NCBI GenBank assembly: GCA_020833225.1
Contig: JAJHQS010000002.1
Coordinates: 1 to 64,000 of the forward strand
DNA length: 64,000 nt
Direction of reading: 5' to 3'
From: Desulfurococcaceae archaeon
Lineage (GTDB): Archaea > Thermoproteota > Thermoprotei_A > Sulfolobales > Desulfurococcaceae
Shown here in pieces: positions 41,087-50,046 of this stretch; position 1 is the first letter of the stretch; each line of letters begins with the position of its first letter. A model generated the notes under the pieces. The model did not search any database, was not told the DNA's origin, and saw only the letters and a list, made by a program, of their open reading frames with translations. A program made the translations under genes and the position numbers.

Positions 41087-41260
41087 AATACTACACAAAC
41101 TCATATATCTCCTAGCAGCTCAGCTATATTAATTAATAGCTAAGATCTCAACTACGAGCTCCCCGATAACATCTCTTTTTAAATGCCTTGTTCTTAGCCT
41201 ACTAATAGCCCAGATGCAAAATAATACGTCGTAAAAGGCTGTTACAGGTTTGAAGTGTTT

Positions 41261-41288
41261 TGTAAATAGCTGTAAATATTTCTAAATA
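41261..41288. repeat. Three helically phased 10-bp repeats (TGTAAATA/TGTAAATA/TCTAAATA), inverted relative to 41467-41494
   Basis: TGTAAATAgcTGTAAATAttTCTAAATA, exact period 10. Confidence 0.7.
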
Positions 41289-41326
41289 CTTCTCAGGGCT
41301 ATGGTGTATGCTGAGCCTCTGCAAAA

Positions 41327-41334
41327 TTTATAAA
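41327..41334 (+). promoter_or_regulatory. TATA box for the structured ncRNA candidate
   Basis: TTTATAAA centred about 26 nt upstream of the GGTGTCTCC start of the GC-rich island. Confidence 0.6.
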
Positions 41335-41356
41335 ACCAAGAGATTTACATATTTAT

Positions 41357-41520
41357 TGGTGTCTCCGGGTTTCCGAGAACCGCAGGGCTTTGAAGCCCCT
41401 GGCGACAGAGGCTGAGCCACTGCGGTGAGGGGGCTCGGGGGTAGCGTGATGAGCCACCTGCCAAGCATTTACAGCTATTCACAGATAATTACAGGTCTTG
41501 GTAGGTGGTAAACGCTACGA
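41357..41520 (+). ncRNA. Novel structured ncRNA candidate between pop5 and psmA
   Basis: GC-rich island with nested complementary arms: TGTC 41360/GACA 41404 enclosing GGTT/AACC and CAGGGCTT-TG-AAGCCCCTG; GTAGCG 41441/CGCTAC 41513 enclosing CCACCTGCCAAG 41454/CTTGGTAGGTGG 41497. Confidence 0.6.
41467..41494. repeat. Three 10-bp repeats (ATTTACAG/ATTCACAG/AATTACAG), reverse-complementary to 41261-41288
   Basis: ATTTACAGctATTCACAGatAATTACAG, exact period 10; ATTTACAGCTATTCACA is complementary to TGTAAATAGCTGTAAAT at 16/17 positions. Confidence 0.7.
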
Positions 41521-41595
41521 CATATACTAGAGTCTTCACGTCATTTAAAAACTTTTAGTTATGAGATTTTTGTGTTTTAATAAGTGGTTTAGGAG

Positions 41596-41680
41596 TGCGG
41601 GGGGTGGGATTTGAACCCACGCAGGCCTACGCCAGCGGATCTTAAGTCCGCCCCCTTTGACCAGGCTCGGGCACCCCCGC
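41596..41680 (-). tRNA. tRNA-Leu (UAA), no intron
   Basis: Minus strand GCGGGGG…GCGGA-CTTAAGA-TCCGC anticodon arm, long variable arm, GTGGGTTCAAATCCCAC T-arm, CCCCCGC acceptor. Confidence 0.95.
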
Positions 41681-49944: not shown

Positions 49945-50046
49945 CGCCGGGGCGGGGATTTGAACCCCGGACCACCGGGTTTCCACCACGGCTACTACTA
50001 TGTGGGGTTAACAGCCCGGCGCTCTTCCAGGCTGAGCTACCCCGGC
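49945..50046 (-). tRNA. tRNA-Asn (GUU) with a 28-nt intron at 37/38 (intron 49981-50008)
   Basis: Minus strand GCCGGGG…CCGGG-CTGTTA|ACCCCACATAGTAGTAGCCGTGGTGGAA|A-CCCGG…CCGGGGTTCAAATCCCCG…CCCCGGC. Confidence 0.95.

What the first reader, a model, noticed from the sequence alone, without database searches (positions are those of the whole stretch)
41261..41520. Structured, promoter-bearing ncRNA candidate flanked by phased inverted decamers in the RNase P / proteasome superoperon
The longest non-coding gap in the window (about 800 bp between pop5 and psmA) has a TATA box (TTTATAAA, 41327). About 26 nt downstream a strongly GC-rich island begins at GGTGTCTCC. It contains a three-way-junction-like module (TGTC 41360/GACA 41404 enclosing two hairpins) and a long two-stage stem (GTAGCG/CGCTAC plus a 12-bp CCACCTGCCAAG/CTTGGTAGGTGG arm with one G-U). 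The stem's 31-nt apical loop carries three ACAG-containing repeats at an exact 10-nt period. It does not match any tRNA, 5S, SRP or C/D layout I know. I see no coding potential, because the longest frames are interrupted.
Basis: partly seen in the sequence, partly recalled or inferred. Interest (0 to 1): 0.78.

Follow-up and report, generated by a model that had tools for sequence, protein, structure and literature searches.

The report
Guide-RNA-like gene of archaeal transposon
The structured non-coding stretch is a 278-bp mobile DNA element that appears to make a guide RNA for a very diverged TnpB (ancestor-of-Cas12) protein; in dozens of heat-loving archaea this RNA gene sits back-to-back with the protein gene instead of behind it, as in known TnpB systems.

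Summary
The structured block 41358-41516 lies in a 278-bp insertion (41238-41515), one of 8 RNA copies in the genome. Full-length copies (1.3 kb) carry one gene for a ~365-aa protein whose predicted fold matches Cas12f/TnpB and whose RuvC motifs are invariant D213 and E277, then D350-R/K-H352. The RNA gene lies head-to-head with that gene: 41 of 46 near-full protein loci in the class have it divergently upstream. One TATA box appears to serve both directions. The RNA has strong compensatory change and ends in a kink-turn hairpin exactly at the element border, so its 3' end would read into flanking DNA. The ends, including the 10-bp-phased ACAG repeats, match IS607 (serine transposase) elements of the same genus, and a WWGRG motif precedes the other border. 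In Sulfolobaceae the same position holds Rfam Sso133, an sRNA of unknown function. Best explanation: a promoter-driven omegaRNA (guide RNA) of a divergent TnpB clade; the window copy has lost tnpB and could act only in trans. Expression, protein binding, cleavage and L7Ae binding are untested. New variant of a known kind.

The parts
41238..41515 (+). tnpB-less (MITE-like) IS607-type element; the GC core at 41238-41239 and 41514-41515 is shared by both junctions
   Evidence: copies aligned; junction logic from the full copy in a HEPN gene
41233..41237 (+). TAM-like flank AAAAG, directly 5' of the element
   Evidence: 58 element flanks give WWGRG; information 0.52/0.95/1.51 bits at -3/-2/-1
41238..41294 (+). 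left end with CTGTAAATA-type repeats, like those at the left end of IS607 tnpA elements
   Evidence: same GGCTGTT start and repeats upstream of serine-recombinase genes (L173, L174, L170)
41327..41334 (+). TATA box TTTATAAA of the RNA promoter; in full copies apparently also used for tnpB on the other strand
   Evidence: conserved ~30 nt before the RNA and ~25 nt before the tnpB start in relatives
41358..41515 (+). RNA scaffold (predicted 5' end 41355-41358)
   Evidence: covariance model R1 hit 41358-41516, 120.6 bits, E 5e-29 (the window sequence was in the seed alignment)
41364..41439 (+). helix P1: 41364-41374 with 41429-41439
   Evidence: 99.4% of cells paired, 7 of 11 pairs with two-sided changes
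41380..41425 (+). helix P2: 41380-41385 with 41420-41425, separated from P1 by a GA-rich internal loop
   Evidence: 99.0% of cells paired, 4 of 6 pairs with two-sided changes
41394..41413 (+). helix P3 with GNRA tetraloop GCGA (41402-41405), present in long forms only
   Evidence: 91.3% of cells paired, 5 of 8 pairs with two-sided changes
41443..41516 (+). terminal hairpin with kink-turn: stem AGCGT/ACGCT, bulge GAT 41448-41450, GA 41451-41452 opposite AA 41510-41511 (GA in most relatives), upper stem 41454-41465/41497-41508
   Evidence: found upstream of the protein in 72 fetched sequences, some duplicated
41466..41496 (+). apical loop with three ACAG repeats at 10-nt period, probable TnpA (IS607) binding sites
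   Evidence: shared with IS607 ends
41516..41535 (+). predicted guide TACGACATATACTAGAGTCT, host DNA next to the element
   Evidence: position only; sequence occurs once in the genome at up to 3 mismatches

Best explanation
The RNA is the guide RNA (omegaRNA) of a family of insertion sequences that encode a highly diverged TnpB/Cas12f-like protein. One TATA box drives two divergent transcripts: a leaderless tnpB mRNA and an RNA of about 100-165 nt that runs to the element's right end and on into host DNA. The TnpB-like protein, probably with host L7Ae on the terminal kink-turn, would use the first ~20 flanking nucleotides as guide and recognise the empty target next to a WWGRG motif, favouring retention of the element. 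Movement would be by IS607-type serine transposase acting in trans on the phased ACAG/CTGTAAATA repeats. The window copy lost tnpB and is a solo guide locus; the intact partner gene is on contig C84 of the same genome. Shown: mobile copies, divergent gene-RNA pairing, RNA structure, TnpB/Cas12f fold, IS607-like ends, clean insertion without target duplication in one case, flank motif. Inferred: transcription, RNA-protein complex, guide use, L7Ae binding, any cleavage.
For: Copies: 5 near-identical and 8 RNA copies in the genome. Full copy of 1344 bp; its removal restores a HEPN gene (PF05168, E 9e-24). Protein: 23 aligned members with invariant D213 and E277; AlphaFold mean pLDDT 87; best PDB matches Cas12f1 7c7l E 4.7e-9, Cas12f 9i8y, Cas12k 7n3o, AsCas12f; weak PF07282 in 7 of 23; profile match to canonical TnpBs of the same genomes, P 2.9e-5, over the C-terminal 72 columns. 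Pairing: RNA in 87 and protein in 81 of 231 genomes, together in 62 (Fisher p 2e-19); 41 of 46 near-full protein loci have the RNA divergently upstream. Structure: 16 of 25 pairs of P1-P3, not used in choosing sequences, show two-sided change; covariation 0.475 against 0.185 shuffled and at most 0.11 slid. U-G pairs kept in up to 31 of 32 sequences at P1 columns 15-17 point to selection on RNA. Ends: same left and right ends as tnpA-tnpB IS607 elements; the genome has two serine transposases and no Y1 transposase. WWGRG flank resembles the AG-rich TAM of IS607 TnpB (PMC11061315).
Against: No expression data in this organism. The third RuvC acidic residue aligns with His352, with Asp350 two residues before, so cleavage is doubtful. 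Zinc-ribbon cysteines are absent, as also in two canonical IS607 TnpBs of this genus. Ten genomes with the protein lack a detected RNA and 31 have RNA without protein, mostly explicable by solo copies and draft genomes. The left border of the element was fixed from one empty site only.
Confidence: 0.8

Rival explanations
1. The structure is a DNA-level or transposition signal (hairpin and TnpA sites) of a MITE, or an RNA that regulates transposition, not a guide RNA.
For: The right-end hairpin loop carries TnpA-type repeats. Antisense RNAs to transposase genes are reported in S. solfataricus (PMC3432209).
Against: P1-P3 lie outside the terminal repeats yet covary strongly, with wobble pairs kept. 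The RNA promoter is conserved, and the RNA is tied to a TnpB/Cas12f-fold gene and does not overlap it.
Confidence: 0.12
2. An H/ACA or C/D modification-guide RNA, because it holds kink-turn motifs and, in the window, an ACA after the basal stem (CGCTACGACA).
For: Kink-turn GAUGA/GA and a terminal stem followed by ACA in the window.
Against: The ACA is host flank and is absent after most copies. No Rfam H/ACA or C/D family at threshold. The RNA is mobile and tied to tnpB.
Confidence: 0.03
3. The family is a guide RNA, but the window copy is a dead relic without function.
For: tnpB is gone; the terminal kink-turn has AA for GA; one pair of P3 (41398/41409) is mismatched.
Against: TATA box and all main helices are intact, the model score is 120.6 bits, second in the genome, and an intact partner gene exists on C84. 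L052, next to the intact gene, has the same AA.
Confidence: 0.45

Closest known systems
IS607 TnpB with RAGATH-18 reRNA (ISFba1; PMC11061315)
   Same: IS607-type element, TnpB-like protein of similar size, non-overlapping structured RNA with a possible kink-turn, AG-rich TAM next to the left end, 3' guide from flanking DNA
   Different: RAGATH-18 RNA lies downstream of tnpB and no RAGATH-18 match was found here; ours is divergent, upstream, with its own promoter; the protein has D-E-(D/H) and no zinc ribbon
Rfam RF02814 Sso133 (Sulfolobus sRNA133)
   Same: matches the first module of the RNA in relative L069 (37.3 bits, below the cut-off of 44); in Sulfolobaceae-like genomes true Sso133 copies lie divergently next to relatives of the same protein and end in a similar kink-turn hairpin
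   Different: the model covers 73 nt and misses the terminal hairpin; no link to a TnpB-like protein was found in the papers searched; it does not match the window copy
IS200/IS605 TnpB omegaRNA (ISDra2; haloarchaeal sotRNA)
   Same: guide RNA of a TnpB, 3' end leaving the element
   Different: there the RNA overlaps the 3' end of tnpB on the same strand and Y1 transposase moves the element (PMC12558985)
Cas12m2 (PMC10442227)
   Same: compact Cas12 with a non-canonical RuvC triad
   Different: HDD triad, CRISPR-associated, zinc finger kept

Membership tests
TnpB / OMEGA nuclease | TnpB/Cas12 fold with RuvC domain | tested here: met
   AlphaFold pLDDT 87; Foldseek top hits Cas12f1/Cas12k/AsCas12f, E 4.7e-9 to 3e-8
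TnpB / OMEGA nuclease | D-E-D catalytic residues | tested here: inconclusive
   D213 and E277 invariant; third site is D350-R/K-H352, with H352 opposite the canonical Asp in hhalign
TnpB / OMEGA nuclease | curated family models (PF01385, PF07282, NF040570) | tested here: not met
   no match over a cut-off; weak PF07282 in 7 of 23 members
TnpB / OMEGA nuclease | structured RNA encoded in the element whose 3' end reads into flanking DNA | tested here: met
   terminal hairpin ends at the element border in 72 fetched sequences, some duplicated; transcription not shown
TnpB / OMEGA nuclease | RNA sense and downstream of tnpB | tested here: not met
   divergent and upstream in 41 of 46 loci
TnpB / OMEGA nuclease | RNA-guided DNA binding or cleavage | not testable with these tools
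   needs biochemistry
IS607 element | ends shared with serine-transposase elements | tested here: met
   same left end GGCTGTT plus repeats and right end AAACGCT in L173/L174
IS607 element | no target duplication, dinucleotide core | tested here: met
   one case: removing 1344 bp at a GC core restores the HEPN gene; IS607 itself uses GG (PMC6188088)
IS607 element | tnpA in the element | tested here: not met
   tnpA absent from these copies; two serine recombinases elsewhere in the genome
Rfam Sso133 (RF02814) | score at or above 44 bits | tested here: not met
   window: no match; L069 37.3 bits; Sulfolobaceae copies 91-97 bits
Kink-turn (L7Ae site) | C stem - 3-nt bulge - GA:GA - NC stem | tested here: met
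   CGU-GAU-GA-NCC/GGN-GA-ACG in most relatives; the window has AA on the 3' strand
Kink-turn (L7Ae site) | L7Ae binding | not testable with these tools
   needs a binding assay

The most novel reading that the evidence does not exclude
A widespread archaeal class of RNA-guided elements in which a RuvC-altered TnpB works with a promoter-driven, L7Ae-bound guide RNA that is uncoupled from tnpB. Once uncoupled, solo guide loci such as the window copy spread by IS607 transposase and, as dispersed guides, programme one shared protein in trans, perhaps as a binder rather than a cutter. Sso133, so far an orphan sRNA, would be its Sulfolobus version.
Probability: 0.35. Interest if true: 0.88.

Novelty: new variant of a known kind. 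Interest (0 to 1): 0.76.

Why it matters
It would give an orphan Rfam sRNA (Sso133) a partner and a likely function, add a large, almost unannotated TnpB clade found in 48 of 88 sampled genera of the class, and show guide RNA genes freed from the nuclease gene and copied on their own. That is a step that resembles how CRISPR-like systems could separate guides from effector. A small hyperthermophilic Cas12-like protein with a separate short guide RNA is also a practical target for biochemistry.

Tried and rejected
Rfam on the window at gathering and at E up to 10: only the tRNA and chance hits. RNase P RNA: found elsewhere on C24, so this is not it. OrfB_IS605 PF01385 in the own genome: none. 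PDB by sequence: none, so structure comparison was needed. Y1 transposase (IS200/IS605): none in the own genome, so IS607 was followed. The GA-rich loop between P1 and P2 was first read as a second canonical kink-turn; given the invariant C-G closing pair its bulge is 2 nt, so I call it only kink-turn-like. TGTC/GACA three-way junction: not supported. The automatic hairpin picker chose wrong sites in some loci and was redone with stricter rules; the redone picker requires pairing, so pair counts of helices 4-5 are biased upward, those of P1-P3 are not. Self-target search of the guide: only its own flank. Paper searches for a divergent tnpB guide RNA or for Sso133 found none in the open library; subscription journals are not covered.

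Full report
WHAT IS THERE. The finding's sequence elements exist where stated, and the block folds far better than shuffles (-85.5 kcal/mol, z -6.9). Rfam finds nothing at the locus except tRNA-Leu(TAA) next door at 41595-41680, minus strand. A nucleotide search showed at once that it is not unique: nine matches in the same genome, five nearly full length at 87% identity or more, and matches in other genera and another family of the order. The window genome's own RNase P RNA is on another contig.

THE ELEMENT. Aligned copies start at GGCTGTT and end at AACGCT, giving an element at 41238-41515. A full-length copy on contig C84 (locus L032/L052) is 1344 bp and carries one open frame (376 codons from the previous stop, about 364 aa from a TTG start), oriented away from the RNA; its far end is the same left end. 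Removing it at a GC core joins a HEPN protein without gap or duplication (PF05168, E 9e-24, profile positions 2-116 of 117). The window copy is therefore an internally deleted, MITE-like version that kept left end, promoter, RNA and right end.

HOW IT MOVES. The genome has two serine recombinases of the IS607 type and no Y1 transposase. IS607 elements with tnpA and tnpB in the same genus have the same left end (GGCTGTT followed by CTGTAAATA-like repeats before tnpA) and the same right end (hairpin with ACAA/ACAG repeats, then GAAACGCT). IS607 transposase is known to bind repeated end motifs with about 10-bp periodicity and to insert at a GG dinucleotide without target duplication (PMC6188088). 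Transposition in trans is inferred.

THE PROTEIN. Homologs occur in 81 of 231 sampled genomes of the class, 48 of 88 genera, and in 69 named loci, among them Desulfurococcales, Ignisphaera, Caldivirga, Vulcanisaeta and one Thermococcus MAG. No curated family covers it; Cas12f1-like TNB is a weak hit in 7 of 23 members. A model from 23 aligned members (mean pLDDT 87) matches Cas12f1, Cas12k and AsCas12f best in the PDB (E 4.7e-9 to 3e-8), with RuvC resolvase further down. Profile comparison with canonical TnpBs of the same genomes aligns the last RuvC motif (P 2.9e-5). D213 and E277 are invariant; the third site reads D-R/K-H in 58 of 60 distinct sequences, and the alignment places the His opposite the canonical Asp. 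From general knowledge, Thermus RuvC also uses a His near this position, so activity cannot be predicted.

THE RNA. Upstream and divergent from the gene lies the RNA. The common anatomy is: TATA box, about 30 nt, GGTGA, a long helix P1, a GA-rich internal loop, P2, optionally a GNRA-capped P3, then a hairpin with a kink-turn (CGU-GAU-GA-NCC/GGN-GA-ACG) that ends at the element border. TATA is about 25 nt from the tnpB start on the other strand, which suggests a shared bidirectional box and leaderless tnpB mRNA (inferred). On a sequence-only MAFFT alignment of 32 diverse copies, 94.4% of pair cells are standard and 30 of 42 pairs have two-sided changes; the covariation score is 0.475, against 0.185 (sd 0.010) for shuffles and at most 0.11 for slid partners. 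RNAalifold alone finds the same P1, P2 and terminal hairpin. The terminal hairpin was used in choosing sequences, so the unbiased part of this evidence is P1-P3, with 16 of 25 pairs changed on both sides. Retained U-G pairs in P1 argue for selection on RNA rather than on DNA hairpins.

GENE-RNA PAIRING. A covariance model finds 8 clear copies in the own genome, only one of which (C84) lies beside an intact gene. Across the class it finds the RNA in 87 of 231 genomes. Protein and RNA co-occur (62 genomes with both; Fisher p 2e-19; 8e-24 when Sso133 is counted as RNA), and 41 of 46 near-full protein loci have the RNA divergently upstream. Thirty-one genomes have RNA without a detected protein, as expected for solo copies.

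SSO133. Rfam RF02814, Sulfolobus sRNA133, matches the first module in relative L069 below its cut-off (37.3 against 44 bits). In the f11 (Sulfolobaceae-like) genomes it is multicopy, up to 14 matches per genome, and many copies sit divergently beside protein hits, for example G208:C1 1935619 minus and 1936468 plus. Three such copies score 91-97 bits, and at least L192 and L193 continue into a GAGUGAUGAGGCU...AGGCUGAACUC kink-turn hairpin. L7Ae immunoprecipitation and RNomics were both used to find S. solfataricus sRNAs (PMC3432209); whether Sso133 came from either I could not check.

FLANK MOTIF. In 58 elements the bases just before the left border are WWGRG. For IS607 TnpB the known TAM is AG-rich (AGGAG in ISFba1) and lies at the left end (PMC11061315). 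Part of this signal may be target choice by the transposase, so it is consistent with a TAM but does not prove one.

VERDICT. By what it resembles, this is an OMEGA-type guide RNA and protein pair. By membership it is a divergent TnpB branch that fails two usual features (curated models, sense-downstream RNA) and is unresolved on the catalytic triad. I found no paper in the open library describing a divergently encoded TnpB guide RNA. I therefore file it as a new variant of a known kind. For the window copy itself, function in trans is plausible but about even with being a relic.

Noticed in passing
   Followed up: yes
window 49945-50046 minus: Rfam tRNA hit of 102 nt that ARAGORN does not report; possibly an intron-containing tRNA.
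   Followed up: no
L095, L069, L064 and others, between tnpB start and TATA: GGGGAATCCCC or GGGATATACCC palindrome just before the tnpB start codon in many relatives; a possible operator for autoregulation.
   Followed up: no
L188, L189 (Sulfolobaceae-like genomes): Solo Sso133 copies lie directly next to an IS607 tnpA gene, so RNA and transposase may sometimes travel together.
   Followed up: partly
L124 (NZ_JACDNS010000002.1, Thermococcus MAG): A full protein-RNA pair in a Euryarchaeota bin, either horizontal transfer or binning error.
   Followed up: no
L173 2197-3501, L171 3174-4406: Otherwise canonical IS607 TnpBs of this genus have also lost the zinc-ribbon cysteines.
   Followed up: partly
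L061, L059, L060, L076: A subtype whose terminal hairpin has a symmetric GAGA/GAGA internal loop in place of the kink-turn, joined to a near-identical RNA core; suggests module swapping between ends.
   Followed up: partly
L068, L069, L072, L074, L105, L113, L115, L116, L129, L141, L112: Second RNA subtype (GGGGAGCC...GGCUCCCGUAG) that is closest to Sso133; left out of alignment A2.
   Followed up: partly
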